DNA of 64,000 nt from an uncultured Prevotella sp. (GTDB lineage Bacteria > Bacteroidota > Bacteroidia > Bacteroidales > Bacteroidaceae). Made by a program: the position numbers and the translations under genes. Below are positions 2,306-18,753 of this stretch, in pieces. The notes beneath the pieces are model-generated. The model was not told where the DNA came from, made no database searches, and saw only the letters and a program-made list of their open reading frames with translations. The stretch spans positions 1-64,000 of the forward strand of contig ONHE01000049.1 in NCBI GenBank assembly GCA_900317545.1, written 5' to 3'. Within the stretch, counting starts at the first letter, position 1. The number at the start of each line of letters is the position of its first letter.

Positions 2306-2327
2306 TATGGGGATGTTAATAACTCTG

Positions 2328-2335: not shown

Positions 2336-2454
2336 ATAAAAAAACGTCAAAATGGAGGAAACGAGGCGTTTTTTTTCGTCAGTAATTAAACTCTGCCTTC
2401 TCTTCTGCATCATATTGTTAGTTACGGCCGCACAGTTCATATAACAATAAAAAA

Positions 2455-2970
2455 ATGAAAGTAAAAATGAAAAAAATGATTTTATCGCTTGTTGCAGCAG
2501 TCGCATTCTCTGCAATGGCTATGGCTCAGGAAGCTAAGAAAGAGGCTGCGCAGTGCAGCAAGTGTGATAAGACCGAGATGCTTCAGCACCGTACGGATCG
2601 CGTTGTCAAGAAGTATGGCCTCAACGAGGACCAGGCCAAGCAGTTGCTCAAGCTGAATACTGCTTTTGCAGACAAGATGTCAGGAACCGGCTTGGGGCAT
2701 TGTGGAAAGCACCAGCAGAAGGGGCAGTGCTGCCAGCAGAAAACGGATGGAGAGACTGGTGCTACCGCACAGCAGCAGAAGCAGTGCCCTTCAAAGGAGC
2801 AAATGCTGGCAAAAAGGAAGATGATGAAAGCTGAAAGGGAGAGCTACAACAAGGAGTTGCAGAAAATCATGACACCTGAGCAGTTCGCTCGGTACAGCAA
2901 TGACCAGAAGAATGCACGCCAGCGCAGACAGCGCGGCAAGCGTGGTGGACAGCCAAAACAGACTGTCTGA
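2455..2970 (+). CDS. DUF4890-type small exported protein with Cys/Gln-rich insert
   Basis: This 171-residue protein has a Sec signal (MILSLVAAVAFSAMAMA, then QEA). A helical repeat with VVKKYGLNEDQAKQLLKL and, near the C-terminus, LQKIMTPEQFARYSNDQK follows, as in DUF4890 / Spy-CpxP-like periplasmic proteins of Bacteroidales. Between the two helical parts lies a hydrophilic stretch rich in Cys, Gln and Lys (CSKCDK, GQCCQQK, QKQCPSKEQ). The C-terminus is basic (RRQRGKRGG). An ATG at 2467 is an equally plausible start. The gene is monocistronic, with a terminator downstream. A periplasmic chaperone or metal-binding role is conceivable but not shown. Confidence 0.7.
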   Translation: MKVKMKKMILSLVAAVAFSAMAMAQEAKKEAAQCSKCDKTEMLQHRTDRVVKKYGLNEDQAKQLLKLNTAFADKMSGTGLGHCGKHQQKGQCCQQKTDGETGATAQQQKQCPSKEQMLAKRKMMKAERESYNKELQKIMTPEQFARYSNDQKNARQRRQRGKRGGQPKQTV

Positions 2971-4363: not shown

Positions 4364-4627
4364 TCAGTTGAGGATGAGTCGGCAGAAGAGTGCCGTCTGA
4401 AGGGCAAGGATAAGTGGTACGCCGTATTTGAACTTCAGATGTCGGGTTTTGTGGTGCACAGTGTACATGGCTGCCCAGGCACCGATAGAACCGCCGATGA
4501 CGGCGAGCCCGAGCAGCGTAGCTTCGGGGATCCGCCACCGGTGATGGCGTGCCTTGCACTTGTCAATGGCATAGGCGAGGAAGGTGACCATGTTGACCGC
4601 AATGCCATAGAGCAGGATGAGTTTCAT
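4364..4627 (-). CDS. DUF1294 small membrane protein
   Basis: The protein has 87 residues with a DUF1294 pattern: a first hydrophobic helix (LILLYGIAVNMVTFLAYA), the motif YAIDKCKARHHRWRIPE, a second helix (LLGLAVIGGSIGAW), the signature HHKTRHLKFKYGVP, and a final helix. It is probably an inner-membrane protein of unknown role. The ATG at 4627 overlaps the upstream stop as ATGA, which favours it over the in-frame ATG at 4633. It is the last gene of the RG-II minus-strand operon; DUF1294 proteins occur in many contexts, so it may simply ride along. Confidence 0.8.
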   Translation of the reverse strand: MKLILLYGIAVNMVTFLAYAIDKCKARHHRWRIPEATLLGLAVIGGSIGAWAAMYTVHHKTRHLKFKYGVPLILALQTALFCRLILN

Positions 4628-7119
4628 TTCCATTCGATCTTCAGATTGTGAAGCATGGTGGTGCCTTCGCCGGCCGTGCCGGTATGCTGGATGGCAAAGC
4701 CTCCGTAAGCGTTGGGCGTGACATCAGCCTGCAGGGCGACCGTGGACTTCACGTGCGCGTCGGCGGGCTTCTGAAGCGGCGTGGTGGTCGATGCCGAGGC
4801 GGAGAGTGTGTTTCCGTGGAGAGACACACGCAGCGTGCAGTTGGTCAGATAGCAGTTGGAGGTCACGGGATCTGTGAGGGGCGTGATGGTGCCATGATCG
4901 TACTTGACGAGCAGGAAGTCCACGGCGTTGGCGTATTTTGTCGTGCGGATGATGCGCAGGCCATAGCCGGTCAACGTCTGCGTGTCAAATTTCAGGCAGA
5001 TGTCCATATACTGCTGCCGGGCGGAAGAGAAGCCCTGGCCGGCCTGTTTGCAGGGGTCGACGAGGAGAGTGACCTCCATATCGCCGAACGCACAGCCTGC
5101 CGGTGTGTAGCGGAGCCTGCTCCCGGGGCGTGTCTGCAGCAGTCCGGTGCCCTTGCAGCCATTGATTCCGGGGCCGTAAATCCAGAAGTCGGCGGCGTTG
5201 TCGACCGTCCAGTTCTGCAGCGTCACATCAGACGGCTTGTAGCCGTCGATGGTCCAGAGTCCGGGCTTGAGGTCAAGTTGGTTGGCACAGGGCAGATGGG
5301 TGAAGTCGGTAGTCAGCTCCCGGTCGCGCAGACCGGTCTGTTTGAATGTCAGAACCTTTGTCGTGAGGGTCACGGCGGTGCCCGGCAGCGAGCGCAGATG
5401 TTTCGGGCGGATGGTCACCTGCAGTCGGCAGTCCTTGTCTCCCGGCTGCAGTCGGTAGGCCGTTTCAGGGTTGCCGTTTCGGCTGACGCTGACTTCATAA
5501 GTCCGGTCCTTGTCTATGCGCGACCACGTGATGACCGATTCGTCGGCCCGTCCCTGCAGGTCGAGCGCATAATCCACGCGTGCCACGCCGTCCTTGACGG
5601 TCAGCCGGGGCTGCCGGGTGAACGCCGGGGCGGGCAGGGTGGAGGGCTTGACGGTGACAGAGGCTGCTCCTTCCAGTCCGTCGTCCGTATAGGCGATGAT
5701 GGCGAAGTGGCGGGGCTTGTCCTCTTCGATCAGCGAGCGCACCCGGCACGTGCTGCCCGCCGGTTCGATCCTGACATAGCGTTCGTAGCCGGCTTCCACT
5801 TTCCAGTGGATCTGTCCTTCATAGAAGGCGTTGAGACTATAGCCTGCATGCCGCATGGCATCAGCCTTCAGCATGATCGGCTCCTGGCCGGTCTGGATCT
5901 CATTGCGCTGTGGCGTCACCGTCAGGCAGGTGGCGAGGTTGGCAGACTGTTCACCGACAAGCTCCTTTTGCCCTAACGGATCCCAGTCGTCATCACCCCT
6001 CAGCAGATTGTAGACGTTGTAGGTGCCGTCGGCAAGTTTGAAGGCAGCGAGAGCTGGTTTGTCGTCGAGTCGCACCGTGTTTTCCGGTTCGCGGGCAGCG
6101 ATGACGATCGGTCGGCCGTTCATAGTCACGTTGGCCTGGTAGCAGCGCAGCCATTTTTCGGGCACAAGTGTCCAGGCCGCATAGGTCCCTTCTGGTGCAT
6201 GGTAACGGCAGTCGATGACGGAAAGGGGATTGAGGCTTTTCGTAAAGTTCTGCCTGAGATAGTTGTGCTTCACGTGGAAGTCTGAATTGAGAAAGACGGC
6301 ACCATGACGATCGCTGTTCCAAAAGGGCTTCGTGGCGTAGAATTCCATATCGCAGTCCAAGTAAACGCCCGTACTTGTCAAGGCGTCATCCGTACACTCC
6401 ATGTGGCAGTGGTTGAATAAGATGCGCTTGGCACCGCCTAACGGGTTCATGTTAAGCCTGCTGATGAACCTCACGTTCTCTGCATAGATGCGGTCGCCGT
6501 GGCAATATGCCACGTGGGCTTGTGTGTAGGCCGGGTTGCGTTTGGCCCGATTCAGCTTCGGATTCAAGGGGAATTCAAGATCGACATTGCAGTAGTTGCC
6601 GAGCGTCATGTCGCGGATGGTCAGTCCGTTGCCGGTGAAGTCAAGCATCGTGAAGTTGCCCCGCGATCCCTGGGTCTGGCCTCTCCGGGATGCGAACACG
6701 ATGTTCGCCGGATCCGGGTTGAGCCCCTTCAGGTGGAGATGCTCGCATTTCACGTACATTCCGATAGGCGCACTGCCGTCCTTGGTGCTTACTTCATCGG
6801 GCTTGTCTGGATCGTTTATCCAGTAGACCCATGGTGCGATGAGCACCGTCATGGGTGCATCGGCGGTCCCGTTCTGCAGGTGTTCGTTGACTTCCTGGAA
6901 GGTGCGGAACACGTAGGGATATTTGTCGGCTTCCGCCTGCGTGAGCTGTCCGTCCAAAAAGAAGGTCTTCGGGCCGAGCTGGTAGGTCTGTCCCTGATAG
7001 GTGACCGAATGGCCTGTGAACCGGATCGGATGTTTCCGGTCCAACGATTGGTATTGCTGCGCAAGGGTATTGGTGCAGAGCAGCATCAGCAGGAACGTGA
7101 GACCGACTTTGACGTTCAT
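4624..7119 (-). CDS. Secreted right-handed beta-helix protein, pectinesterase-like N-terminal half
   Basis: The protein has 831 residues with a signal peptide ending near LLCTNTLAQ. Residues 65-250 read like a CE8 pectin methylesterase beta-helix: FRTFQEVNEHLQNG, VLIAPWVYWIND, QAHVAYCHGDRIYAENVRF (the QAVAL segment) and CHMECTDDALTS where the family has DFIFG. The QDTL segment with its catalytic Asp appears as RLNMNP, so the classical active site is incomplete. Residues 460-830 look like Ig-like and laminin-G/CBM-like beta domains. It lies 15 bp after the symporter gene. A role in pectin binding or non-classical hydrolysis is inferred; enzyme activity is uncertain. Confidence 0.65.
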   Translation of the reverse strand: MNVKVGLTFLLMLLCTNTLAQQYQSLDRKHPIRFTGHSVTYQGQTYQLGPKTFFLDGQLTQAEADKYPYVFRTFQEVNEHLQNGTADAPMTVLIAPWVYWINDPDKPDEVSTKDGSAPIGMYVKCEHLHLKGLNPDPANIVFASRRGQTQGSRGNFTMLDFTGNGLTIRDMTLGNYCNVDLEFPLNPKLNRAKRNPAYTQAHVAYCHGDRIYAENVRFISRLNMNPLGGAKRILFNHCHMECTDDALTSTGVYLDCDMEFYATKPFWNSDRHGAVFLNSDFHVKHNYLRQNFTKSLNPLSVIDCRYHAPEGTYAAWTLVPEKWLRCYQANVTMNGRPIVIAAREPENTVRLDDKPALAAFKLADGTYNVYNLLRGDDDWDPLGQKELVGEQSANLATCLTVTPQRNEIQTGQEPIMLKADAMRHAGYSLNAFYEGQIHWKVEAGYERYVRIEPAGSTCRVRSLIEEDKPRHFAIIAYTDDGLEGAASVTVKPSTLPAPAFTRQPRLTVKDGVARVDYALDLQGRADESVITWSRIDKDRTYEVSVSRNGNPETAYRLQPGDKDCRLQVTIRPKHLRSLPGTAVTLTTKVLTFKQTGLRDRELTTDFTHLPCANQLDLKPGLWTIDGYKPSDVTLQNWTVDNAADFWIYGPGINGCKGTGLLQTRPGSRLRYTPAGCAFGDMEVTLLVDPCKQAGQGFSSARQQYMDICLKFDTQTLTGYGLRIIRTTKYANAVDFLLVKYDHGTITPLTDPVTSNCYLTNCTLRVSLHGNTLSASASTTTPLQKPADAHVKSTVALQADVTPNAYGGFAIQHTGTAGEGTTMLHNLKIEWK

Positions 7120-7134
7120 GGTTTCTGAGTTGTT

Positions 7135-8709
7135 TTAGTTGAAATATAGATAGAGCCCGATCATCACGGCGAATAGCAGGAACCAGCTCGTAAGGACCAG
7201 ATAAGAACGTTCGTGGCGGATAGGACTCGGGATGTCGAAGCGTTGGCTGTCGTGGTCGCACAGGCTGGTGATGATCATTCCGATGCAGAGAATGACAAAG
7301 AGGTAGAAGCTCAGCAGCATGAAGTGCGGCCAGAAGTGGTATTTGTCGGCCGGCAGGATCCAGTAATAGAGCACGCCGACAAACAGGCAGAAGGCCGTTC
7401 CGACGGTCAGTGTGAGGTTCGCGCCGCGTGTCGTCGCTTTCTTCCAGAATACACCGAGCAGGAAGACCGTGGCCATCGGAGGAGCCAGAAAGCTCAGGAC
7501 CGACTGGAAGATATTGAACAGATCGAGACCTTTGATGCTGTCTATGGCAACGCAAAGCATGATGGAGACAGCGGCCCCGATGGCTGTGACCATCCGACCG
7601 ATATGGATGATATGCCGCTGGGAGGCTTCGGGGTGGTACTTCTTCACATAGATGTCCATTGTGAAGACCGTGCTCAGCGCGTTCAGAGCAGATCCGATGG
7701 TGCTGACTAAAGCTGCTGTGAGCACGGCGAAGACCAATCCCACCATGCCCTTGGGAAACAGCATCGTCACCATCGAGATATAAGTCTCGTCCGGATTGTC
7801 AAGGGTCATCTGACCCGTACGTACCATGGCGTATGCTATGATGCCAGGTAGAATGTAGAGAGGGACATCGAGTATCTTCAGCCAACCGGTGAAGTTGGCG
7901 CCCAACTGCCCCTGCTTGATGTTCTTGGCTGCAAGCACCGGCTGCACCATACTTTGATCGGTGCACCAGAACCAGACTCCCATCACCGGGTAACCCAATA
8001 GGATCGGAAGCCACGGGAAAGCCTTGTCCGTGTTCGGCTTGAACAGGATCCAATAGTCATCGGGCACATTCGCGGTCAGGGTTTCAAGGCCGCCCAAGCG
8101 GTGGATGCCGAGAATGGCCAGCGTGGCACTGACAAATATGAGCAGCAACATCTGATAGACGTTGGTGTAAGCGATGGCCTTCAGACCGCCAAGCATGGTG
8201 AAGAAGAGAGAGATGCCCAATAATATGAGCGCGGAAGCCCACATCGGAATGTCAAACACTTGCCTGATGAGCACGCCTCCGGCGAACAGTGTCAGAGCCA
8301 ACCAGGATACCAATATCGTCACGATCGTATACCAGGCCAGAATGTTCCGCGTGTCTTGACCGAAGCGTAAGCCCATGAACTCCGGGAGCGTAGATATCTT
8401 GCTGCCTAAGTATCTCGGTGCAAAGACGAAGGCTAAAAGGGCTATGAAGATGAACGCATACCAGGCATAGTTGCCCGACACGATGCCACTTGTGAATCCG
8501 GCGGATGCAGATGCGATCAGCATAGAAGGGCCGACGTTGGTCCCCCACATCGAGAAACCGATATGATGCCATTGCAGCGAATGCTCCGCAAGAAACAGCG
8601 AGCTGTTCTTCTTCCTGCGCATGCTTGCCCATAAGCCTATTCCCAATAGGATGGCAAAATAGCTTCCCAAGATCAGCCAGTCAAGGCTTTCCATGTAATG
8701 TGTCTCCAT
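7135..8709 (-). CDS. SSS-family sodium/solute symporter (SGLT-like)
   Basis: This 524-residue protein has about 14 hydrophobic segments and sodium/solute symporter motifs: NVGPSMLIASASAGFTSG near the start, TLPEFMGLRFG, MLGGLKAIAYTNVYQM and TGWLKILDVPLYILPGI, the last typical of sugar-transporting SGLT relatives. The ATG at 8709 is chosen over the TTG at 8715. It follows the URO-D-like gene by 77 bp and precedes the beta-helix gene by 15 bp. In this operon it most likely imports a sugar or small oligosaccharide freed from pectin across the inner membrane, driven by sodium. The substrate is inferred only from context. Confidence 0.85.
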   Translation of the reverse strand: METHYMESLDWLILGSYFAILLGIGLWASMRRKKNSSLFLAEHSLQWHHIGFSMWGTNVGPSMLIASASAGFTSGIVSGNYAWYAFIFIALLAFVFAPRYLGSKISTLPEFMGLRFGQDTRNILAWYTIVTILVSWLALTLFAGGVLIRQVFDIPMWASALILLGISLFFTMLGGLKAIAYTNVYQMLLLIFVSATLAILGIHRLGGLETLTANVPDDYWILFKPNTDKAFPWLPILLGYPVMGVWFWCTDQSMVQPVLAAKNIKQGQLGANFTGWLKILDVPLYILPGIIAYAMVRTGQMTLDNPDETYISMVTMLFPKGMVGLVFAVLTAALVSTIGSALNALSTVFTMDIYVKKYHPEASQRHIIHIGRMVTAIGAAVSIMLCVAIDSIKGLDLFNIFQSVLSFLAPPMATVFLLGVFWKKATTRGANLTLTVGTAFCLFVGVLYYWILPADKYHFWPHFMLLSFYLFVILCIGMIITSLCDHDSQRFDIPSPIRHERSYLVLTSWFLLFAVMIGLYLYFN

Positions 8710-8786
8710 CGTCAATTCTTAATGATTATAGTTGTTGGTCCATACCCGTCTTGCCCGTCTCTCACAGGCAGGCAGGGGGAGGGGCA

Positions 8787-9863
8787 TCAGTGTATGAAGC
8801 GGTCGATGATGTCCTCGGCTCGGCGGACCTCTTCTTCCGTATGGAAGTCACAGTTGATCTGTATGCCTTCGGTTCCCACGGCATCCAGGAGCGGCGCAAT
8901 CTCGTCGAGTTCGACCCAGTTGGCCTCTATGCTCTTTCCTCCGGCAATGATCTGCTTGTAGAGATCATACCATTTGGGATTGCCGCCTTGCGGTTCGCCA
9001 ACGCCGGGGGTCCACTGGATGGCGTCAAGTTCTTCGATCTCCAACAGCGCCGGCAGATGTCGCATGGCACCGACACCATCAAGATGATAGAGCGTAAGAT
9101 CCAAACGCCGGGCCTGTTCGCGGATGAACGGTTGGACGAACGTGCGGAAATCATCTTCCGAAATCATCGTGGAGATATCTGATTGCAGCTTGCTGACCTT
9201 GCCGGGACCCCAGAGTGAGAAGTAGCAGAAAGCCATTCCGTCATCTTCCTTGATGATTTCATAAAGTTCATCGAATACCTGAAAGTAGACATCGTTGATC
9301 TCCTGCAGGCGCTGCAAGGTACCTTCGGGATCCATCATCGTGTTCATCAGCGCATTGTCTGTGCCCTCCAGTGAGGCCAAGACATCCAATCCCTCCATCA
9401 GATCCGGCATGCCTACGTAATAGTTACCATTCGAACGCAGCTTGCATTCGGTCAGGAGCCGATGATGGAGCTGCCATCCGGCCGAACCGCGATCAAACTT
9501 TATCGGAGCCGAAGGATCAAAATGGTCGGGTTGGTGAATCCATATCGTATCCGCGCCACCCTCAAGCGGACAGCCTAAAATGGCGGCTAACGAGCCTGGT
9601 CCTAACTCTGTGTTGGCCACGGGGGGAATGTCTGCAAGGAACGAACTGTGCGCCATATACCAGTCTATGTATGCCGCCCGCCATTGAGGATCAAGACATC
9701 GCTGCTGATGATCAATGGCCGGCGCGGGAGCCAAGCGTTCTCCGTGCGGCGCCATGGCGGGATCTTGGAAGTGCTCCCACATGGTCAGCAGCACGCCCTT
9801 GTGGTTCCACCAGTCTATATAACGTCGTTTACTCTCTTCCCAATTTGCTTTCCACGTTTTCAT
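8787..9863 (-). CDS. URO-D superfamily protein, candidate corrinoid methyltransferase
   Basis: This 358-residue protein has no signal peptide. Its second half follows the uroporphyrinogen-decarboxylase fold as used by MtaA/CmuA/MtvB-type methyltransferases: SEDDFRTFVQPFIREQ, then LTLYHLDGVGAMRHL and LLEIEELDAIQWTPG, and a late IQINCDFHTEEEV. Relatives bind catalytic zinc with His-X-Cys and a late Cys; here I see His260-X-Asp262 and Cys338, so one ligand may differ. It is in one operon with a corrinoid protein, a reactivation protein and a homocysteine methyltransferase module, so methyl transfer is more likely than haem synthesis. I propose it demethylates a sugar or another pectin-derived methyl compound; the substrate is unproven. 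Confidence 0.65.
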   Translation of the reverse strand: MKTWKANWEESKRRYIDWWNHKGVLLTMWEHFQDPAMAPHGERLAPAPAIDHQQRCLDPQWRAAYIDWYMAHSSFLADIPPVANTELGPGSLAAILGCPLEGGADTIWIHQPDHFDPSAPIKFDRGSAGWQLHHRLLTECKLRSNGNYYVGMPDLMEGLDVLASLEGTDNALMNTMMDPEGTLQRLQEINDVYFQVFDELYEIIKEDDGMAFCYFSLWGPGKVSKLQSDISTMISEDDFRTFVQPFIREQARRLDLTLYHLDGVGAMRHLPALLEIEELDAIQWTPGVGEPQGGNPKWYDLYKQIIAGGKSIEANWVELDEIAPLLDAVGTEGIQINCDFHTEEEVRRAEDIIDRFIH

Positions 9864-9882
9864 ATCTTATATTCTTTGAAGT

Positions 9883-12147
9883 TCAAAAGTTGTATCCTCT
9901 GAAGTTATCGTCTATTTTCAGTCTGACCGTTTTGCGCATATCCATCTCGTCCGTGCAGTCTACGTCTTCCGGATAGAGGGCGATTTCGGCTCCCGGACGT
10001 ACAAAGACCGGCATCAACTCGAGTGGACAGGCGTAGCCGTAAAGCCATCTGCCACCTTCATATGATTCACCCGTGAAGAAGTTAATCCATTTCCCTTCCG
10101 GCAGATAGATATCTCTCTCTTGTCTGCTGTTCATGACCGGGCAGACCAAAAAAGTGTTCCCGAAATAGTATTCGTCATCTATGTGCCAGCAAACCTTATC
10201 TTTCGGATGATGAAAAATAAGGGCCTGGATGATCGGAAAGCCGCTTTCGGTTGCCGCTTTGCTTTGTTCCACGATGTACGGAATCAGCTTATACCGGAGC
10301 CTCCACCATCGTTTGACGATCGGAGCGATACGTGGATAGCTCCAGGGCTCGCGTTTACAGGTCCCGTGATACCGCATATGGGATGTGAAGACACCAAATT
10401 GAGTCCAACGGACGTAAACGTCTTCCTCGACCGGAGAATTCATGAAGTCTGGTTCGGAATGAAATCCCGGCACGTCATGGCTCCAGAATGCGAAGCCCGA
10501 AAGGCCGAAATGGAGTCCGCCTTTCAATGATCCGGCCATCCCATCCCATGAACTTTGCGAGTCGCCACCCCAATGCAGGGGGTAGCGTTGGCATCCCGCC
10601 CAGGCCGAACGGGCCCATACGATGCCTTGATCTTTGCCGTTCACTTCTTCTGTAGCTTCATAGGCGGCGCGCTGATAGAGCAGTCCGTAGAGGTTGTTGA
10701 GCCTTTCCGGTGTCATCGCATGATAGATATGGTCCATGTGGATGTTTTCTCCGAAGTCGGTTTTGATGCAGCTTACTCCTTTCTTCAGTAAGTCCTTGAG
10801 CAGTCCCTTGTACCATTCAGTCGCTTTGTCATACGTAAAATCAATCGTCCCTGCATAGTCCAAAGCCGAAAAATTGGATTGTCCGCCTGCGCCATCATGC
10901 TGCTGCGGATGCTTCGGTTGCGAGATATAGTGATTGGATTTGGCTTCTTCAAGCTGCTCGGCTCCCTCTGCCACGTAAGGCAGTTGCCACAGACTGATCC
11001 GGAATCCATGACTTCTGAGATTGCGGATGAAGCCTTCCGGATCAGGAAAACGTTCCGGATTGAACTTCCATTCGCAGAGCCAGTCGGTCCGAAACCAGCC
11101 GGTATCGAGGTGGATTACATCGCAGGGATAGTGCTCTTCACGCAGTCTGTGACAGATATCATCCACTTCCGTCGCGGAAAAATAGGTCATCCGGCTCATC
11201 CAGATGCCAAAACTCCATAGTGGTGGCATTGCCGGATAGCCGGTCAATCTTCTATAGGTATGGAGGATTTCTTCAGGGTTCTGACCGCCGATAAGAAACA
11301 CATCGATCGTGGCCCGGTCACACATGAACTGTACACTTCGTGTGGAATGATCGGCCAAAGACAGTTTGCAGTAGTCGCTCGTATGGTAAAAGGCACCGTA
11401 ACCTCTGCTCGACAGATAGAACGGAATATTCTTATAGCAGCGGCGGTTGTTGACTCCCTGACCGTCCTGATTCTTCAATTGGAAGGTCTGACCGGACAAA
11501 TCCATTTTCCGGAAACGTTCTCCGGTTCCAGCGAAGCATTCATCCGGCTCGCACTTAAAGGACAGCGTAGCCCGCTCAGGATAGCCGTCCTTCCTGACGA
11601 AGCCTATTGGCAGCGCGTCATAACGTGGCGGAGAGAAATGGTCGTCACTCAGTTCGACGGCCTTCCCGATGTTTCCGTCCGGATAAAGCTTAAGGAATGT
11701 CGTAGGCTGAGTTGGCGGCAACAGATCGCTCCAGTGGTCTAAGGCGTATGGGCGTGTATCAACCGAGGCGCGCAGACGGCCTTGCGGGTCCTTGATCAGA
11801 TAGAGACCTTCCTGGTTTTCGATGCTTAAGGGAATCCGTCTCACATCCTCCGCCATCTCCAGCATGTCGTCCTGCTCCGTCATCCGATCATCTGTCATCG
11901 AGACAAAGAGGCGCAATATGTCGGGCTGATATGCCCTGAGAACCACGGTGAAGGATTCTTGCGGAGCGTCCATGTCAGGCTCCATGTCTTCCTGGAGCTT
12001 CTGTTTTTGGAAAGGAACGGTCAGTTCTATATCTCCCTCATGTTCCTTGATGGCGGTCATCTGCCAGCATTTCCAAAGCGCTTCATTCAACTTCAGCTCA
12101 GGGTCAAAGTCCATGAAGTCGAAGAGGTGATAGTTAGTTTGCTTCAT
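9883..12147 (-). CDS. GH31 alpha-glycosidase, probable cytoplasmic alpha-xylosidase type
   Basis: The protein has 754 residues. The GH31 nucleophile region is KTDFGE (Asp464), and the likely acid/base region is HWGGDSQSSW (Asp529). The N-terminal beta-sandwich includes FAGTGERFRKMDLSGQ, and the barrel has PPLWSFGIWMSR, a pattern common in YicI-like alpha-xylosidases. The start at 12147 gives MKQTNYHLFD with no signal peptide, so it should act in the cytoplasm, unlike most other hydrolases in this locus. It overlaps the upstream gene by 14 bp and is followed after 19 bp by the URO-D-like gene. RG-II side chain A carries terminal alpha-linked 2-O-methyl-xylose, a reasonable but untested substrate. 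Confidence 0.85.
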   Translation of the reverse strand: MKQTNYHLFDFMDFDPELKLNEALWKCWQMTAIKEHEGDIELTVPFQKQKLQEDMEPDMDAPQESFTVVLRAYQPDILRLFVSMTDDRMTEQDDMLEMAEDVRRIPLSIENQEGLYLIKDPQGRLRASVDTRPYALDHWSDLLPPTQPTTFLKLYPDGNIGKAVELSDDHFSPPRYDALPIGFVRKDGYPERATLSFKCEPDECFAGTGERFRKMDLSGQTFQLKNQDGQGVNNRRCYKNIPFYLSSRGYGAFYHTSDYCKLSLADHSTRSVQFMCDRATIDVFLIGGQNPEEILHTYRRLTGYPAMPPLWSFGIWMSRMTYFSATEVDDICHRLREEHYPCDVIHLDTGWFRTDWLCEWKFNPERFPDPEGFIRNLRSHGFRISLWQLPYVAEGAEQLEEAKSNHYISQPKHPQQHDGAGGQSNFSALDYAGTIDFTYDKATEWYKGLLKDLLKKGVSCIKTDFGENIHMDHIYHAMTPERLNNLYGLLYQRAAYEATEEVNGKDQGIVWARSAWAGCQRYPLHWGGDSQSSWDGMAGSLKGGLHFGLSGFAFWSHDVPGFHSEPDFMNSPVEEDVYVRWTQFGVFTSHMRYHGTCKREPWSYPRIAPIVKRWWRLRYKLIPYIVEQSKAATESGFPIIQALIFHHPKDKVCWHIDDEYYFGNTFLVCPVMNSRQERDIYLPEGKWINFFTGESYEGGRWLYGYACPLELMPVFVRPGAEIALYPEDVDCTDEMDMRKTVRLKIDDNFRGYNF

Positions 12148-13831
12148 ATTTAATATGTGTGCCGGGATGATTGGTCCCGATTTCTTCTTTCGTAAAGTTG
12201 TTCTTCCGGATCGTAAAGCCGTCACTGGAATCGTCGAGGTAAAGCTTAAACGCCCGGTTATTGGTGGCATAGGGGGCGGGGAAGGGCTTGCCGATCACGT
12301 TCCCGCTTATTTCGGAATCGGGTTGATATGAAAGTGTGTAGATCCCCCCGGCGTCATAGAGCATCCGGGCATAGTCTTCCACCCGGTTGTTGATGATCCG
12401 ATTGTTCCGCATGCCACACGCATCGGAGGTCCATCCCCATCCCACGCAGATGCCGGAATAGTTGACTTCGCTGACTTCATTGCTGTCGATGATCGTGTTG
12501 CGGACATATCCGCATCCGATTCCCACGGCTCCCCAATCCTCGTTAGCCGCATCGCGGATCCGGTTGTGGGTGAAGGTGAGGGTGTCGCAGTAGGCTTCTT
12601 GATCAGCCGAAACGCGATAGGGACGATGCACCTCCATTGCTCCTTCCGAGAAAGAACCTGCCATCAGGGCAGTCCCACCTATATCTTTGAAGTGGCATAA
12701 AATCACTTCGATTTTCCTGTTGCCGACTGGAAAATCGAGCGCCGTTGCACTCAAGTGAGTGAAAGAACAACTATCGAAGGTGATATTCCTGCCATATCGA
12801 ACGGTCACAGCAGCCACCGGGCGTTCGATCCATGCCTGGTTTTCCAGCCGGGCGTTCCATGGGAGTCCCTCTTTTTGTAGTTTATAGGCTTCTGTCAATG
12901 GGAATCCGCCTTGCAAGGTGACATGCCCGAAGGTGGAAGGACGATTCCATGCGGAATACTGAAACTGGATCCCGCGGAAACAGACATTCGCTATTCGCTT
13001 GGCCGCAGAACCTTCTGCGCAAACGAGCTGTTCTGTTATAGGTATTTCTACCTCCATATTACTGGCTGTCTGGCCGGCTTTCGGATAGTAGTAAATCTTG
13101 CCGGAAGCAGCATCCTGATACCACTCTCCGGGTTCGTCAACAAACTGGAGGGCATTCGTAAGACAATAGGATGACGAGCCGTATTCGCCATTGATTACCG
13201 GTTGAGGCCAAGGATGGGAAAATTCAAGGGTTGATTCGGGGTCATGAAAAGTGACGTCCGTTTCTTTTCCTCTTACTTTGAAAGACTTTACCCGAAGCAT
13301 TGCGACTGCCCAACGTTGATGGACCATCATCTCCATTTGTGGCGCTTGTTGGATTGAAGATATGTTTGTAGGAGTTGGGATCGTGATGGTTTGCGTTGCC
13401 GGATCAAAGTTCAGCATTCGTCCCATTTGATATTTTCCGAACTGGGAAGCGCGCAACATCTTCTCTCCATTTATCCATAGCTGTCTGATCAATAGCGGCC
13501 TGTTGCCGTTCTTCGGGGCTTCTGCAACAAACAGTTTTCCCTCTTTTCGCCACTCCTTCAATTGAATGCCGCCACAGATGATCGCCCCATCACCGTTGAG
13601 AACGATGTTACTGTCCTCCGGGTAAAGCCGTATCGGCTCTTTGATGCGATAAATCCGATTGCCCAACTCAATGCTGATAACATCCTTCTCACCAAGTCGA
13701 TGCCTGTCGCGTGCCCTGCGAATCGCCATCTGCAGCGTTTCGTTGGGACCGACGATAATTTCTGTGGCAAAGCTATGCATTAGGCTTATAGCCAGCAGAA
13801 GCAAACAGCTGTGAAGTCTCTCCATGCTCAT
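12134..13831 (-). CDS. Secreted GH141-like right-handed beta-helix glycosidase
   Basis: This 565-residue protein has a signal peptide (MERLHSCLLLLAISLMHSFA) and a right-handed beta-helix. It is clearly paralogous to the plus-strand protein at 18750-20561: both share RLYPEDSNI/RLLPEDSNL, IRQLWING/FRQLWVNG, and the late block SGICVGWGW / TGISLGWGW followed by YDAGGIYTL / YDTAGIYTL. GH141 includes an alpha-L-fucosidase of the B. thetaiotaomicron RG-II system. The ATG at 13831 starts one base after the previous stop; 13825 and 13843 are alternatives. Periplasmic or surface action on a fucosyl-type linkage is inferred. Confidence 0.7.
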   Translation of the reverse strand: MSMERLHSCLLLLAISLMHSFATEIIVGPNETLQMAIRRARDRHRLGEKDVISIELGNRIYRIKEPIRLYPEDSNIVLNGDGAIICGGIQLKEWRKEGKLFVAEAPKNGNRPLLIRQLWINGEKMLRASQFGKYQMGRMLNFDPATQTITIPTPTNISSIQQAPQMEMMVHQRWAVAMLRVKSFKVRGKETDVTFHDPESTLEFSHPWPQPVINGEYGSSSYCLTNALQFVDEPGEWYQDAASGKIYYYPKAGQTASNMEVEIPITEQLVCAEGSAAKRIANVCFRGIQFQYSAWNRPSTFGHVTLQGGFPLTEAYKLQKEGLPWNARLENQAWIERPVAAVTVRYGRNITFDSCSFTHLSATALDFPVGNRKIEVILCHFKDIGGTALMAGSFSEGAMEVHRPYRVSADQEAYCDTLTFTHNRIRDAANEDWGAVGIGCGYVRNTIIDSNEVSEVNYSGICVGWGWTSDACGMRNNRIINNRVEDYARMLYDAGGIYTLSYQPDSEISGNVIGKPFPAPYATNNRAFKLYLDDSSDGFTIRKNNFTKEEIGTNHPGTHIKYEAN

Positions 13832-13832
13832 A

Positions 13833-14537
13833 TCATTTGTCATTTTGTACGATGCGGCGGTAGATGCAGTTCTTATTGCTGCAGATGGCACAGCCATACT
13901 CACGCCGTTTCATATGTGGGCCGATACCGATGATGCCGCTCACCGACTTCGCAGGATACATCAGACAGCTCTCGGACAGGCTGATGCCGGTCGGATTGGA
14001 GCCTGCCAGGAGGAAGAGATCCTGCTGTCCGGTCAGCGGCCAGTTGCAATAGCCCGGGCTGTAACGGTTGCTGATGCCGAGGGAGGCGGCCTGCATGTCT
14101 TTCTGAAGCGCGCTTTGGACTCTGTCCATGGCTTTCTCCACGGTCAATGAGCCCAACGCGTCGGTGATGAAGGCCTCGAGATAGTCTCCGGCTTTACTGT
14201 AGTCGCGATATTGGGTGGAGAAAACGGCACCGGCCGTGCATAAGAACAGCGCCACGTGGGTTGCCCCCCGCATATAGCCGCAGACCTGTCTGTCCATGAA
14301 TAGTGTCATGCCTCCGATCCGCATTTCACCCTGCCGGATGTTCAGGTGATCCACTGCGAGGATCCGATATCCCCCGACCGCCGCCAGATTCGCATTTCTG
14401 AGTTCCTCCATCTTCGTCAGCATGAAGCTGTGGGCCGGATGTTCCGGGTCGTCGATATGCAGATAGGCGTCTGCCTGTTCTGGCGTTGGCAGGACGTCTC
14501 TCAATGGATATTCATAGCTGACGAATTGGTTTCTCAT
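13833..14537 (-). CDS. MetH activation-domain-like protein (corrinoid reactivation) with C-terminal Cys motif
   Basis: This 234-residue protein resembles the S-adenosylmethionine-binding activation domain of cobalamin methionine synthase, here standing alone. Residues 158-163 (RYSPGY) and the block ISLSESCLMYPAKSVSGI (about 185-202) match the domain's RYSxGY and L-T/S-E-S-x-M-x-P-x-x-S-V-S-G signature. Near the C-terminus Cys216-X2-Cys219-X4-Cys224 resembles a metal or iron-sulfur site and is not part of the MetH domain. The gene follows the corrinoid-protein gene by 19 bp and abuts the GH141-like gene. It most likely re-methylates or reduces cob(II)alamin in the neighbouring corrinoid protein. 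Confidence 0.75.
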   Translation of the reverse strand: MRNQFVSYEYPLRDVLPTPEQADAYLHIDDPEHPAHSFMLTKMEELRNANLAAVGGYRILAVDHLNIRQGEMRIGGMTLFMDRQVCGYMRGATHVALFLCTAGAVFSTQYRDYSKAGDYLEAFITDALGSLTVEKAMDRVQSALQKDMQAASLGISNRYSPGYCNWPLTGQQDLFLLAGSNPTGISLSESCLMYPAKSVSGIIGIGPHMKRREYGCAICSNKNCIYRRIVQNDK

Positions 14538-14556
14538 GTGTCGCTTCTTCTTTCTC

Positions 14557-15228
14557 TCAGTTTGTTTCTATCATTTTGTCGAGTTTGTCCACGACATCCT
14601 GCGGGTCCTTGCCATAGACGGCCCCGATGCTTTCGGCAAACTCGGGGGTGACAGGCGCGCCACCTACGACGAAGCGTGTCTTCGGATGGTCCTTGGTGAC
14701 GGCGTCGATGACGGTCTTCATGTTGTGCATTGTCGTCGTCAGCAAGGCGCTCATGCCGATGATGGCACCCGGGTTGGACTCCAAGGCAGACACGTATTTC
14801 TCAGGCGGACAGTCGATCCCGAGGTCGATCACATTATATCCGGACCCCTCGACCATCATCGCAACGAGGTTCTTGCCGATATCATGCATGTCACCGAAGA
14901 CCGTTCCGATGATGAACGTGCCTTTCTGCTTGACCTCGCCCGACTTGAAATAAGGTTTGATATACGTCAGACCTGCGTTCATCGCCTTGGCGGCGAGCAG
15001 CATCTGGGGCACGAAGACTTGCCCTTTGGAGAATTTCTCTCCGACCACGCCCATAGCGGGTATCATGGCCTCGTTCATGATTTCCGATGGCTTATATCCT
15101 GCCTCCAAGGCACTCTTGGTATATTCCTGCGCACCGTCCTGTCCTCTCATCGAGGGTGGAAAGGGTGACGCCGCGTTGATCTTACCGCATTCTACGCAGT
15201 CGTAGATCTTCTGTAGTAGCTCGTCCAT
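14557..15228 (-). CDS. Corrinoid (B12-binding) methyl carrier protein, MtxC/MetH-module type
   Basis: The protein has 223 residues. Residues 1-95 are the four-helix cap region (MNEAMIPAMGVVGEKFSKG, VFVPQMLLAAKAMN). Residues 100-223 are the Rossmann-like B12-binding domain with the diagnostic DMHDIG motif (Asp113-His115-Gly118), whose His is the lower axial ligand to cobalt. The later GMSALLTTTM and VVGGAPVT segments also fit. It is the same layout as MtbC/MtmC corrinoid proteins and the central MetH module. The gene starts 2 bp after the homocysteine methyltransferase gene. It should carry the methyl group between the donor-specific methyltransferase and homocysteine. Confidence 0.9.
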   Translation of the reverse strand: MDELLQKIYDCVECGKINAASPFPPSMRGQDGAQEYTKSALEAGYKPSEIMNEAMIPAMGVVGEKFSKGQVFVPQMLLAAKAMNAGLTYIKPYFKSGEVKQKGTFIIGTVFGDMHDIGKNLVAMMVEGSGYNVIDLGIDCPPEKYVSALESNPGAIIGMSALLTTTMHNMKTVIDAVTKDHPKTRFVVGGAPVTPEFAESIGAVYGKDPQDVVDKLDKMIETN

Positions 15229-15230
15229 TC

Positions 15231-16079
15231 TTATTGTTGATAAAGTTCCAATTCATGCCTGATGGCTGTCAGATAGACGCCGTTCGTGCCGCAGCATCCG
15301 CCTACGTAGTCGGCATATTCGAAAGCCGGCACGAAGTCTTTTGCGAAAGCCTCTGGCGTGTAGAGCCTTGTCTCGGCCTGTCCGTTGGAGATCGGCTTGC
15401 CTGCATTCGGCTTGAAGAGCGTCGGCAGACTGGTTGCCTCCTTGAATTGCCTGATGATCGGCAGCGCCGCATCAGGTCCCAAGGAGCAGTTGAGGCCTAT
15501 TGCGTCGATCCCCATAGGCGCCAACGTGGTTACAATCTGATCTACCGTGTTGCCCATAAGCGTAGCACCGAATTCGGTGAAGGTCATCGAGCAGAATACG
15601 GGGACATGATATTGCTTTGCAACATCAGTCGCTATCTGCATCATATCCAAGTCCATGAACGTCATGAGATAAATTAAATCAGGGTTTTCGCTCATCCCCG
15701 CAGAGATCATCTGCTCGTAGATCCGACGGCACTCATCGCGTGTGAGATCGCCGAAGGGTTCGAGCAGGGCAGCGAGAGGACCGCAGTCGAGAGCCACCTT
15801 GACACCCGTTCCCCGGAGCGCATCTTTGGCGATCTTCACGCCCTTGCTGACGATCTCCTCGACGGAGTAGTCGGAATTCCGCTCGACGGTGGGCGCGTTG
15901 GCGCTGAAGGTGTTGGTCGTGACGATGGTTGCGCCGGCTTCAGCGAACTCCTTGGCCACCATTTCTGGGATCTCAGGGTGATCAATGTTGTAGCGCCATA
16001 CCGGTCCCCGATCGTCCGTATGTTCCCACATTGTGGTGCCCGCGGCACCATCCAATAGTTGAATGTTTCTCTTTGCCAT
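15231..16079 (-). CDS. Stand-alone homocysteine S-methyltransferase module (MetH N-terminal type)
   Basis: The protein has 282 residues and matches only the first module of MetH. The start LLDGAAGTTMWE fits the family's DGxxGT motif. The zinc ligands are present: Cys198 in LNCSLGPD, and Cys262-Cys263 in GGCCGTNG. The methyl-folate (pterin) module that follows in MetH is absent from this protein and from the whole window. It is the first gene of the RG-II minus-strand operon, behind a -7 box. It probably transfers the methyl group from the next gene's corrinoid protein to homocysteine, making methionine, but another thiol acceptor is possible. Confidence 0.85.
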   Translation of the reverse strand: MAKRNIQLLDGAAGTTMWEHTDDRGPVWRYNIDHPEIPEMVAKEFAEAGATIVTTNTFSANAPTVERNSDYSVEEIVSKGVKIAKDALRGTGVKVALDCGPLAALLEPFGDLTRDECRRIYEQMISAGMSENPDLIYLMTFMDLDMMQIATDVAKQYHVPVFCSMTFTEFGATLMGNTVDQIVTTLAPMGIDAIGLNCSLGPDAALPIIRQFKEATSLPTLFKPNAGKPISNGQAETRLYTPEAFAKDFVPAFEYADYVGGCCGTNGVYLTAIRHELELYQQ

Positions 16080-16719: not shown

Positions 16720-18753
16720 ATGATCATGAGGAATAGGTTGAGATTACTCTTATTATTGTCCGTTTCTTCGGCTGTTCCCGTCTTTGCGCAGAGTGGCGGA
16801 CTGACCGATATGAGCCGTAGTCCTTATGCGAAAATCGTCAACACCCCGATGGGATCTGTCCGTTGGACGGGTGGCTTTTGGGGTGATCGTTTCGGGGTGA
16901 TCAGCAAGACCTCCGTCTGGGACATGTGGAACACGTGGGACGATCCCGCCCTCAGTCATGGCTTCCGCAATTTCGAGGTGGCCGCAGGCACGGTGAAAGG
17001 CACCCACAAAGGTCCTCCTTTCCACGATGGAGACATGTATAAATGGCTCGAAGGCTGTGCGGCCGTCTATGCCGTCACGAAGGATCCGAAGTTGGACAAG
17101 CTGATGGACCGGTTCATCGAGCAGGTGGCCAAAGCGCAGCGGGCTGACGGCTACATCCACACCCCGGTCGTCATCGACGAGCGGAACAAAGGTGTCGACT
17201 CGCATGCGGCTGACCATACCGTGATCGGAATTACCGTCGGGGGGAAGAACGAGAAAGGAGCGTTCGCCTCACGGCTCAATTTTGAGACCTACAACCTTGG
17301 TCATCTCATGACGGCCGGCATCGTTCACAAACGGGCGACAGGCAAGGACAACCTGTTCCAATGTGCCGTCAGGGCGGCCGATTTTCTCTATCACTTCCTG
17401 AAAAACGACCGTGACGAGCTGGCGCGCAATGCCATCTGCCCCAGCCATTACATGGGGGCAGCTGAGATGTATCGCATGACCGGCGATGCGCGTTACCTCG
17501 AGTTGGCCAAGGAGCTGATTGCGATCCGCGACTCGGTGAAGAACGGTGAAGACCACAATCAGGACCGCGTTCCCTTCCGTCAGCAGTATGAGGCGATGGG
17601 GCATGCCGTCCGCGCCAACTACTTATATGCCGGCGTGGCCGACCTCTATGCCGAGACGGGCGAGCAGCAGCTGTTCAAGAACCTGTCAAGCATATGGGAT
17701 GACATCGCCAACCATAAGATCTACATCACCGGCGGATGCGGTGCGCTCTATGATGGCGTGTCGCCCGACGGGACCACTTACGACCAACCGTCCATCCAGC
17801 AGATCCATCAGGCCTATGGACGGCAGTTCCAATTGCCCAACGAATCATCCCACAACGAGACCTGCGCGCAGATCGGCGAGCTGCTCTATTCATGGCGTCT
17901 CTTCCAGACAACAGGCGACTCGAAGTATGTGGACATGGTCGAGAACGAGCTGTACAACGGCATTCTGCCGGGTATCTCGCTGGATGGCAAGTCGTATTTC
18001 TACACCCAGGCCCTGCGGAAAAACCAAGATTTCCCTTACGTCATGCGCTGGCCGAAGTCGCGTCAGCGCTATATCTCCTGTTTCTGTTGCCCTCCCAACA
18101 CGCTCCGCACATTGGCCGAGGCCCAGGAGTATGCCTACTCCATGAGCAAGGACGGACAGACCTTGTATGTCAACCTTTATGGCGACAACCGGTTGAGACA
18201 GAAGAACATTGACATCGAACAGGTGACTGGCTATCCCTATGACGGGCGAGTCGTGCTGCGGATCCGTCAGGCCAAGGGGCTCAGGAAGATCATGATGCGC
18301 CTGCCCGGATGGACAGGAGAGGCTGGTTACCGTGCGTTTGAAGGTGGCTGGAAGAAAGGCGACTCGATCGTGCTGGATCTTCCGATGAGGGCACGGCTGA
18401 TCGAAGCCAACCCGTTGGTCGAGGAGAGCAAGAATCAGGTGGCCGTGAAGCGCGGTCCGATCGTCTATTGCCTTGAGTCGGTGGATATCGCCGATCGGGC
18501 CGACATCGACAATGTGGTGATTCCGACCGACATCAAGCTCGATCCCGTTTCGATGACCATTGACGGCCATACGTTCGTGGCCTTGGAGGGAGAGGCCCAG
18601 TTGTCCGAGGAGCCCGCATGGGACCGTCAGACCCTCTATCGTGAAGTCAACGTCCGAAACCGCAAGGTCCGCATCCGCCTGATACCCTACTATGCCTGGG
18701 GCAATCGTGGTGACCGCGTCGATATGACCGTATGGATGAATCTGAAAAAATGA
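16720..18753 (+). CDS. Secreted GH127-family glycosidase
   Basis: This 677-residue protein has a signal peptide (LLLLLSVSSAVPVFAQ). It is a GH127 (former DUF1680) enzyme with the full zinc-cysteine active site: NETCAQIGELL near residue 378 supplies Glu and Cys, and CFCCPPN near residue 453 supplies the nucleophile/ligand pair. Family enzymes are beta-L-arabinofuranosidases, but the GH127 member in the B. thetaiotaomicron RG-II locus acts on aceric acid (from memory). The surrounding GH141, GH78 and GH143/142-like genes make that RG-II role attractive. First gene of the plus-strand operon; its stop overlaps the next start as ATGA. Confidence 0.9.
   Translation: MIMRNRLRLLLLLSVSSAVPVFAQSGGLTDMSRSPYAKIVNTPMGSVRWTGGFWGDRFGVISKTSVWDMWNTWDDPALSHGFRNFEVAAGTVKGTHKGPPFHDGDMYKWLEGCAAVYAVTKDPKLDKLMDRFIEQVAKAQRADGYIHTPVVIDERNKGVDSHAADHTVIGITVGGKNEKGAFASRLNFETYNLGHLMTAGIVHKRATGKDNLFQCAVRAADFLYHFLKNDRDELARNAICPSHYMGAAEMYRMTGDARYLELAKELIAIRDSVKNGEDHNQDRVPFRQQYEAMGHAVRANYLYAGVADLYAETGEQQLFKNLSSIWDDIANHKIYITGGCGALYDGVSPDGTTYDQPSIQQIHQAYGRQFQLPNESSHNETCAQIGELLYSWRLFQTTGDSKYVDMVENELYNGILPGISLDGKSYFYTQALRKNQDFPYVMRWPKSRQRYISCFCCPPNTLRTLAEAQEYAYSMSKDGQTLYVNLYGDNRLRQKNIDIEQVTGYPYDGRVVLRIRQAKGLRKIMMRLPGWTGEAGYRAFEGGWKKGDSIVLDLPMRARLIEANPLVEESKNQVAVKRGPIVYCLESVDIADRADIDNVVIPTDIKLDPVSMTIDGHTFVALEGEAQLSEEPAWDRQTLYREVNVRNRKVRIRLIPYYAWGNRGDRVDMTVWMNLKK

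What the first reader, a model, noticed from the sequence alone, without database searches (positions are those of the whole stretch)
8787..16079. Dismantled methionine synthase plus a URO-D protein inside an RG-II operon: candidate demethylation route for pectin methyl sugars
Seen: separate genes for a MetH-type homocysteine module (15231-16079), a corrinoid protein with DMHDIG (14557-15228) and an activation-domain protein (13833-14537), 2-19 bp apart, then GH141-like and GH31 genes overlapping or abutting, then a URO-D-family gene (8787-9863). There is no pterin/methyl-folate module. Known: in acetogen O-demethylases a URO-D-fold protein removes the methyl group and a corrinoid protein carries it; RG-II contains 2-O-methyl-xylose, 2-O-methyl-fucose and methyl esters. 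Inference: methyl groups from pectin-derived compounds go to corrinoid and then to homocysteine, giving methionine and a demethylated sugar. I know of no described system of this kind in Bacteroidota.
Basis: partly seen in the sequence, partly recalled or inferred. Interest (0 to 1): 0.93.

Follow-up and report, generated by a model that had tools for sequence, protein, structure and literature searches.

The report
Methionine synthase fed by pectin methyl-sugars
A Prevotella-like bacterium carries, inside a cluster of genes for digesting the pectin RG-II, a set of vitamin-B12 methyl-transfer genes that is predicted to strip the methyl group from an unusual pectin sugar and likely passes it to homocysteine to make methionine; if confirmed, it would offer an answer to the open question of how bacteria living without oxygen use methylated sugars.

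Summary
The "URO-D" gene has no Pfam/NCBIfam hit, but its model has the uroporphyrinogen-decarboxylase/MtaA fold. Relatives settle the partnership: of 80 related loci, 12 fuse URO-D to a corrinoid module and 63 have URO-D + homocysteine methyltransferase + corrinoid in one polypeptide (the one such protein scanned with Pfam has no pterin module). Across 298 Bacteroidaceae genomes the URO-D gene and the operon's GH31 gene occur together in 31 of 33 carriers, within 5 kb in 28 of 31. All 32 URO-D genomes carry the RG-II marker aceric acid hydrolase (18 of 266 others do). GH141 is known from BT1002, which releases 2-O-methyl-xylose-α1,3-fucose from RG-II; GH31 is α-xylosidase-like, without signal peptide. 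Best reading: the disaccharide is imported and cut, 2-O-methyl-xylose is demethylated onto the corrinoid protein, homocysteine takes the methyl. Donor sugar and all chemistry are inferred. Main counter-evidence: wild-type B. theta, which appears to carry this cluster, accumulates the disaccharide. "Dismantled MetH" is wrong: the homocysteine module belongs to a stand-alone lineage. Similar cassettes with other URO-D donors sit in other glycan loci.

The parts
15231..16079 (-). Homocysteine S-methyltransferase module (predicted methyl acceptor side), first gene of the operon
   Evidence: PF02574 5.4e-51; GLNC and GGCCG zinc motifs; aligned to T. maritima MetH Hcy domain
14557..15228 (-). Corrinoid (B12) methyl-carrier protein, MtgC/MtbC-like, DMHDIG
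   Evidence: PF02607/PF02310; NF047996 MtgC 183 bits, below cut-off 370; 70% identical to the L003 protein
13833..14537 (-). Corrinoid activation protein (partial PF02965)
   Evidence: 8.2e-10; distinct from the separate, better-scoring MetH activator found in relatives
12134..13903 (-). GH141 glycosidase with a signal-peptide-like N terminus (true start probably 13825-13843)
   Evidence: PF21231; 386 bits to BT_1002, PDB 5mqp
9883..12147 (-). GH31 alpha-xylosidase-like enzyme without signal peptide (ORF extends to 12270)
   Evidence: PF01055; NF007940 alpha-xylosidase 474 bits, below cut-off 606; full-length match to PDB 5f7c
8787..9863 (-). URO-D-fold protein, predicted sugar O-methyl:corrinoid methyltransferase; conserved H260, D262, H341
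   Evidence: fold; fused to corrinoid or to Hcy methyltransferase + corrinoid in relatives
7135..8715 (-). SSF sodium:solute symporter, predicted importer of the methylated sugar
   Evidence: PF00474; about 72% identical to L003 and P. vulgatus counterparts
4624..7119 (-). Secreted multi-domain beta-strand protein of unknown function, last gene of the operon
   Evidence: no Pfam match above cut-off, no PDB sequence match; all-beta model, uninformative fold matches
16720..18753 (+). Aceric acid hydrolase (GH127), divergent RG-II gene; context
   Evidence: NF049879 937 bits, cut-off 950
18732..20561 (+). BT_1002-like GH141, predicted to release 2-O-methyl-xylosyl-fucose from RG-II chain A; context
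   Evidence: 760 bits to 5mqp; BT1002 activity from PMC10154630

Best explanation
The operon at 4624-16079 (minus strand) encodes a set of B12 methyl-transfer proteins (URO-D-fold protein, corrinoid carrier, activation protein, homocysteine methyltransferase) that is predicted to remove the O-methyl group of 2-O-methyl-xylose released from RG-II side chain A and likely hands it to homocysteine, which would yield methionine and free xylose. Proposed order: (1) a GH141 enzyme releases 2-O-methyl-xylose-α1,3-fucose in the periplasm (known for BT1002, inferred here); (2) the SSF symporter imports it (inferred); (3) the cytoplasmic GH31 splits it into 2-O-methyl-xylose and fucose (inferred); (4) the URO-D protein, through an H-x-D...H site, moves the methyl group to Co(I) of the corrinoid protein (inferred); (5) the homocysteine module takes the methyl from methyl-Co(III) (from family knowledge, untested here); (6) the activation protein re-reduces Co(II) (from family knowledge, untested here). 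Shown by sequence: the gene set, its fusions and its linkage. In relatives step 5 would be done by the MetH-type domain of the triple fusion and/or by a MtaA-like thiol methyltransferase (URO-D2).
For: Gene fusions: of 80 related loci (the best of 196), 63 have URO-D+HcyMT+corrinoid in one ORF, 12 URO-D+corrinoid, 4 URO-D alone, 1 cut by a contig end; 63 of 63 triple fusions keep G-x-[NT]-C, GGCCG and DxHDIG; the one triple fusion scanned with Pfam (L097, from genome G180, not one of the 80) has PF02574, PF02607, PF02310 and no pterin domain at E<=1. Fold: MtaA/URO-D. Linkage: URO-D in 32 of 298 genomes, GH31 ortholog in 32 of 298, both in 31 (Fisher 8e-40); gap under 700 bp in 26 of 31, within 5 kb in 28 of 31. 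RG-II marker at E<=1e-150 in 32 of 32 URO-D genomes vs 18 of 266 others (1.8e-30); over the curated cut-off 25 of 32 vs 16 of 266. Same slot, different acceptor enzyme: window HcyMT-CORR-ACT-GH141-GH31-UROD-SSF; L003 CORR-URO-D2-ACT-GH141-GH31-UROD-SSF. Two separate Hcy-methyltransferase lineages serve the same kind of URO-D. Motif: URO-D2 is H-x-C...C in 12 of 12; donor-type URO-Ds of other loci H-x-C...H (6 of 8) or H-x-D...H (2 of 8); window URO-D H260-x-D262...H341, conserved in 81 of 81; PMC10418091 gives His-Cys-Cys for S- and carboxylate or non-ligand replacement for O-methyltransferases. BT1002 (GH141) releases 2-O-methyl-xylose-α1,3-fucose (PMC10154630).
Against: No biochemistry. Wild-type B. 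theta accumulates 2-O-Me-Xyl-α1,3-Fuc when grown on a chain-A oligosaccharide (PMC7939467), although BT_0338-0343 seem to be this cluster. Of 49 loci with at least 7 kb on both sides, 21 (all triple fusions) have no GH31 in the locus. 18 genomes with the RG-II marker lack the URO-D gene. URO-D2 is present in 30 of 32 URO-D genomes, also beside triple fusions, so the acceptor there may be another thiol; in P. vulgatus the only PF02574 place is in MetH. Loss of MTHFR/MetH is not significantly associated (6 of 11 URO-D genomes vs 5 of 20 listed same-genus genomes without it, p 0.13). The equivalence of H341 to the second donor His was judged by eye, because MAFFT misaligned the window row there; hhalign gave no usable alignment. 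An alkyl methyl ether is a poorer leaving group than the aryl ethers of known O-demethylases (general chemistry).
Confidence: 0.58

Rival explanations
1. Same methyl-transfer chain, but another RG-II-derived donor: 2-O-methyl-fucose of chain B, a methyl-etherified glucuronic acid, or methanol from methyl esters.
For: RG-II also holds 2-O-methyl-fucose and methyl esters (PMC12282258, PMC7939467 passages); B. theta accumulates the chain-A disaccharide.
Against: The co-inherited hydrolases are GH31 (alpha-xylosidase-like) and GH141, which fit 2-O-methyl-xylosyl-fucose. No GH139 (methyl-fucosidase) was recognised among the window proteins scanned, but I did not search for that family. Known methanol enzymes (MtaB) are another family (recalled).
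Confidence: 0.2
2. The URO-D/corrinoid part is right, but the acceptor is not homocysteine in general: another thiol, or folate elsewhere in the cell, takes the methyl group, and the homocysteine module is a side function.
For: URO-D2, a MtaA-like protein with a His-Cys-Cys site, is in 30 of 32 URO-D genomes.
Against: The window genome has no URO-D2 hit (one search finds it in 44 other genomes) and no full MetH or MTHFR hit (87% complete), so its only visible acceptor is the homocysteine module; 63 of 80 loci carry that module in the same polypeptide.
Confidence: 0.12
3. A folate-independent methionine synthase or methyl-sulfur/selenium salvage system that merely sits beside pectin genes.
For: Similar composition to mlp clusters (URO-D proteins, corrinoid protein, activator; PMC10418091); 21 of 38 triple-fusion loci with flanks lie away from GH31.
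Against: Near-absolute co-occurrence with GH31 and the RG-II marker; the donor URO-D lacks the His-Cys-Cys site typical of S/Se enzymes.
Confidence: 0.06
4. The URO-D protein is not a methyltransferase (decarboxylase-like or sugar-binding).
For: No sequence-profile hit to any methyltransferase family.
Against: Fusion to corrinoid and homocysteine-methyltransferase modules in 75 of 80 loci, counting 12 + 63; top fold row is the methyltransferase MtaA, although tied within 1 Z unit with URO-D enzymes.
Confidence: 0.04

Closest known systems
Corrinoid O-demethylases of acetogens (MtvB/OdmB/VdmB with corrinoid protein, activator and folate methyltransferase) and the related CdmBCA
   Same: URO-D-fold methyltransferase I, corrinoid carrier, activating enzyme, O-methyl donor (PMC13222342 passages)
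   Different: Known donors are methoxylated aromatics (or haloalkanes for Cdm) and the acceptor is tetrahydrofolate; here the donor is predicted to be a sugar, the acceptor homocysteine, and the genes sit in a pectin operon
Split methionine synthase / glycine betaine demethylase MtgBCDE of Ruegeria and the split MetH of Phaeobacter
   Same: Separate homocysteine and corrinoid modules; demethylation of a methyl compound linked to methionine synthesis (PMC12478193 abstract and passages, PMC5764234 passages)
   Different: Those include a pterin module and a betaine methyltransferase; here no pterin module was found and the donor enzyme is of URO-D type
MetH (B12-dependent methionine synthase)
   Same: Homocysteine, corrinoid and activation modules; triple-fusion Hcy domains group with MetH
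   Different: No pterin module found; the window Hcy module is from another lineage; corrinoid protein scores higher with MtgC/MtbC models than with MetH
Type 1 mlp gene clusters
   Same: URO-D-family proteins with corrinoid protein and activator, no folate methyltransferase (PMC10418091)
   Different: His-Cys-Cys sites and S/Se substrates there; the word Bacteroid does not occur in that text; the donor protein here lacks that site and is tied to glycosidases
P450 oxidative demethylation of 6-O-methyl-galactose in marine bacteria
   Same: Removal of a methyl ether from a polysaccharide-derived sugar, known in Bacteroidota (PMC10033563 passages)
   Different: Uses a monooxygenase and releases formaldehyde; the present route would need no oxygen and would conserve the methyl group
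Folate-independent methionine synthases MesA-D
   Same: Methionine made without methyl-folate (PMC7857596 passages)
   Different: Those are MetE-type core enzymes with other methyl sources

Membership tests
Corrinoid-dependent methyltransferase system (donor enzyme, corrinoid protein, acceptor enzyme, activator) | Donor methyltransferase of URO-D or MttB/MtaB type | tested here: inconclusive
   URO-D/MtaA fold of the model, shared with decarboxylases; activity not tested
Corrinoid-dependent methyltransferase system (donor enzyme, corrinoid protein, acceptor enzyme, activator) | Corrinoid protein with DxHxxG | tested here: met
   DMHDIG, PF02607+PF02310
Corrinoid-dependent methyltransferase system (donor enzyme, corrinoid protein, acceptor enzyme, activator) | Acceptor methyltransferase | tested here: met
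   PF02574 with the three-cysteine zinc motifs
Corrinoid-dependent methyltransferase system (donor enzyme, corrinoid protein, acceptor enzyme, activator) | Reductive activator | tested here: inconclusive
   PF02965 partial match 8.2e-10, no RACo/Ram-type domain in the scanned protein
Aromatic O-demethylase (MtvB/OdmB) family | Sequence relationship to known URO-D O-demethylases | tested here: inconclusive
   No PDB sequence match at all, so none to the related CdmB; fold match only; MtvB/OdmB not compared directly
MetH methionine synthase | Pterin (methyl-folate) binding module | tested here: not met
   No PF00809 in the operon genes or in the L097 triple fusion at E<=1
MetH methionine synthase | Full-length match to TIGR02082 in the genome | tested here: not met
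   Only three partial pieces, all in the window; genome 87% complete
Type 1 mlp gene cluster | His-Cys-Cys URO-D proteins in the cluster | tested here: not met
   Window URO-D has H-x-D...H; no URO-D2 hit in the window genome; many relatives do carry a His-Cys-Cys URO-D2
RG-II utilisation locus | Signature RG-II enzymes beside it | tested here: met
   Aceric acid hydrolase just under cut-off, BT_1002-like GH141, BT_1020-like protein

The most novel reading that the evidence does not exclude
Anaerobic Bacteroidota carry a whole class of glycan-locus-encoded, B12-dependent sugar O-demethylases: an exchangeable URO-D donor enzyme for each methyl sugar on a shared corrinoid/acceptor/activator chassis. 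In the window lineage and in Prevotella the chassis ends in homocysteine, so plant-cell-wall methyl ethers become methionine, and in some genomes without MetH and MTHFR this is the only visible route to the methyl group of methionine.
Probability: 0.45. Interest if true: 0.95.

Novelty: new variant of a known kind. Interest (0 to 1): 0.86.

Why it matters
How anaerobes remove methyl ethers from sugars is stated to be unknown for 6-O-methyl-galactose (PMC12316285: 'a mechanism to be discovered'); aerobes use a P450. These genes would be candidate enzymes for such a step, in common genera including Phocaeicola vulgatus and probably B. theta. The cluster could also supply an enzyme for the RG-II linkage that B. 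theta's known RG-II enzymes leave uncut. It would link plant-fibre methylation, vitamin B12 and methionine supply, extend corrinoid demethylation from aromatic to sugar ethers, and give a function to genes now labelled 'methylamine corrinoid protein'.

Tried and rejected
Pfam, NCBIfam and PDB sequence searches with the URO-D protein gave nothing; only the fold search worked. hhalign of URO-D against URO-D2 gave probability 1% and an unreliable frame, so ligand positions rest on motifs, spacing (79 residues from the His to the second-site Cys in MtaA; 79 from H260 to D339 and 81 from H260 to H341 in the window protein) and conservation; a MAFFT alignment with other URO-Ds misplaced the window row at the second site. 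D339, an alternative second-site residue, is N in 3 of 81. No Rfam match at gathering score in the window, so no cobalamin riboswitch was seen. The idea that loss of MTHFR and MetH marks the system was tested and is not significant. The idea that B. theta lacks the cluster was dropped when published locus tags pointed to BT_0338-0343. The 831-aa protein was modelled, but its PDB matches are low-coverage and uninformative. Ndeh 2017 is not held. Paper searches touching on methyl-sugar demethylation or corrinoid systems listed no title or abstract that describes such a system; the library holds only openly licensed papers, and of the papers cited I saw abstracts or passages, not whole texts.
Full report
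Observation. The genes are as described. On the minus strand, in transcription order: homocysteine S-methyltransferase 15231-16079, corrinoid protein 14557-15228, activation protein 13833-14537, GH141 (ORF 12134-13903), GH31 (ORF 9883-12270, start probably 12147), URO-D-like 8787-9863, SSF symporter 7135-8715, and a secreted 831-aa protein 4624-7119. Divergent from it lie RG-II genes: aceric acid hydrolase 16720-18753 (937 bits against a cut-off of 950), a BT_1002-like GH141 (760 bits to 5mqp) and a BT_1020-like protein. The nearest named record is a Prevotella MAG (L002, 98% identity over the URO-D protein).

Natural fusions. Among its closest homologs are 600-aa proteins with PF02607+PF02310 attached. 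A scan of GTDB species genomes gave 196 relatives, of which the best 80 loci were kept. Of these 80, 63 have URO-D + homocysteine methyltransferase + corrinoid module in one ORF, 12 have URO-D + corrinoid, 4 have URO-D alone, and 1 is cut by a contig end. All 63 triple fusions keep G-x-[NT]-C, GGCCG and DxHDIG. The one triple fusion scanned with Pfam (L097, genome G180, not one of the 80) has PF02574, PF02607 and PF02310, and no pterin-binding domain at E<=1. That three modules become one polypeptide is strong evidence that they act in sequence. In a URO-D tree the unfused forms, window included, lie on one side of a supported branch (98/92).

Interchangeable acceptor. In L003 the order is CORR - URO-D2 - ACT - GH141 - GH31 - UROD - SSF: the same operon as the window, but with a second URO-D-family protein where the window has the homocysteine enzyme (placed between CORR and ACT). 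URO-D2 matches MtaA best and has a His-x-Cys...Cys site. A tree puts the window homocysteine module with stand-alone relatives, several of them named Clostridia (16 rows, 100/100), and the sampled triple-fusion domains (18 of 63) with MetH (22 rows together, 100/100). So at least two lineages of homocysteine methyltransferase, and one thiol-type URO-D, accompany the same kind of donor protein. This is assembly, not a dismantled MetH. URO-D2 is in 30 of the 32 URO-D genomes and not found in the window genome and G272. Why most Prevotella-type carriers have both a homocysteine domain and URO-D2 is unresolved.

Metal site. In the window protein H260, D262 and H341 are conserved in 81 of 81 URO-D domains (80 loci and the window), and D339 in 78 of 81. 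Twelve of 12 URO-D2 proteins read H-x-C...C. Eight donor-type URO-Ds from other loci read H-x-C...H (6) or H-x-D...H (2, L103 and L104), the latter matching the window (the window's second position was judged by eye). PMC10418091 (passages) reports His-Cys-Cys for S-methyltransferases and carboxylate or non-ligand replacements for O-methyltransferases; PMC13222342 (passages) adds that some URO-D enzymes of this kind work without zinc.

Linkage to pectin. In 298 Bacteroidaceae genomes (the same draw), URO-D orthologs occur in 32, orthologs of the window GH31 in 32, both in 31 (Fisher 8e-40). The exceptions are G262 (URO-D only) and G248 (GH31 only). The two genes are under 700 bp apart in 26 of 31, within 5 kb in 28, and on different contigs in 3. 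Aceric acid hydrolase (E<=1e-150) is in 50 of 298: in 32 of 32 URO-D genomes and 18 of 266 others (1.8e-30); over the curated cut-off it is 25 of 32 and 16 of 266. Related genomes are not independent, so the p-values overstate the case, but five genera show the pattern. Compared with the window, GH31, URO-D and SSF of L003 and P. vulgatus are 68-76% identical, GH141 47-49%. Against this, of 49 loci with at least 7 kb on both sides GH31 is in the locus in 28 (3 of 3 single, 8 of 8 URO-D+CORR, 17 of 38 triple), so the triple fusion often stands alone.

Donor. BT1002, the founding GH141, releases 2-O-methyl-D-xylose-α1,3-L-fucose from RG-II chain A (PMC10154630 passage). B. theta cuts all but one RG-II linkage (PMC12282258 passage), and wild-type B. 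theta accumulates that disaccharide (PMC7939467 passage); that this is the uncut linkage is my inference. A cytoplasmic, alpha-xylosidase-like GH31 (nearest NCBIfam NF007940, below its cut-off; full-length ortholog of PDB 5f7c, which I recall as BT_0339) is the kind of enzyme expected for it. Then 2-O-methyl-xylose remains, and the URO-D gene starts 19 bp after GH31 in the window. Hence the proposed substrate. The counter-evidence is that B. theta seems to own the cluster: BT_0338 GH141 (PMC8264420), BT0339 alpha-xylosidase (PMC10434189), BT_0340/0342/0343 'Mta' B12 proteins (PMC8941943), which fits the order seen in L099 and L092; yet the disaccharide accumulates. Non-expression, missing B12, a defective gene (in L092, another genome, the URO-D frame is broken) or a wrong substrate would each explain it. 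I did not read the B. theta sequence itself.

Methionine. The window genome (87% complete) shows no full MetH, no MTHFR and no full MetE, only a 391-aa PF01717 protein on C132. Five 99%-complete relatives (G143, G180, G186, G229, G274) also show no MTHFR and no full MetH and carry triple-fusion-length URO-D ORFs with homocysteine and corrinoid pieces (two read). But 5 of the 20 listed same-genus genomes without URO-D lack MTHFR as well (p 0.13), so auxotrophy cannot be excluded. The 19 carriers in the genera g3, g6 and g11 have MetH, a separate MetH activator and MTHFR, and in the two read (L092, L099) a second, divergent activator beside the cluster. In P. vulgatus the only PF02574 place lies in MetH, so there the acceptor would be URO-D2's thiol or MetH.

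A wider class. Fourteen genomes have URO-D2 without this URO-D; I fetched ten. Nine have a corrinoid protein beside URO-D2, and eight have another PF01208 protein within about 6 kb. Glycosidases nearby include GH95, GH2, GH3, GH127, GH120 and, twice, what looks like a mannan locus (one annotated with GH5, GH3, GH26, GH130 and an epimerase). One (L108) has URO-D2 alone. This suggests that sugar-linked corrinoid methyl transfer is more general in Bacteroidota. None of the titles or abstracts listed by my paper searches describes it, and PMC12316285 (passage) states that demethylation of methyl-galactose in anaerobes has not been elucidated.

Verdict. The methyl-transfer chain and its coupling to homocysteine in the window are well supported by anatomy (about 0.85); a carbohydrate methyl ether as donor is likely (about 0.75); 2-O-methyl-xylose specifically is the best guess (about 0.6). 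These figures are my judgement. The kind (corrinoid methyl transfer) is known; the predicted substrate class, acceptor, architecture and setting are new.

Noticed in passing
L100-L109 (URO-D2 loci without the RG-II URO-D): Corrinoid - URO-D2 - activator cassettes, most with another PF01208 donor-type URO-D, sit beside GH95, GH2, GH3, GH127, GH120 and apparent mannan (GH5/GH3/GH26/GH130) genes: possibly demethylases for other methyl sugars.
   Followed up: partly
window 4624-7119: Secreted 831-aa protein with many homologs (1414 at E<=0.001), no Pfam domain above cut-off; all-beta model, no informative PDB match.
   Followed up: partly
L085 586-1761 (own genome contig C132): 391-aa PF01717 (MetE catalytic-domain-like) protein in a genome with no MTHFR hit; a possible second methionine synthase or an unrelated enzyme.
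   Followed up: partly
L092 7228-9127: In genome G265 the URO-D/corrinoid gene is split over two reading frames while GH31, GH141 and the symporter are open: loss in progress or a sequencing error.
   Followed up: no
window 30630-31979: 449-aa protein of the RG-II locus with only sub-threshold similarity to S9 peptidase/acetyl xylan esterase.
   Followed up: no
window 988-2515: Two overlapping DUF4230 genes in tandem.
   Followed up: no
L101 1938-3476: A RACo-type corrinoid activator next to a URO-D2/corrinoid cassette that also has a PF02965-like activator: two activator types beside the same chassis.
   Followed up: no
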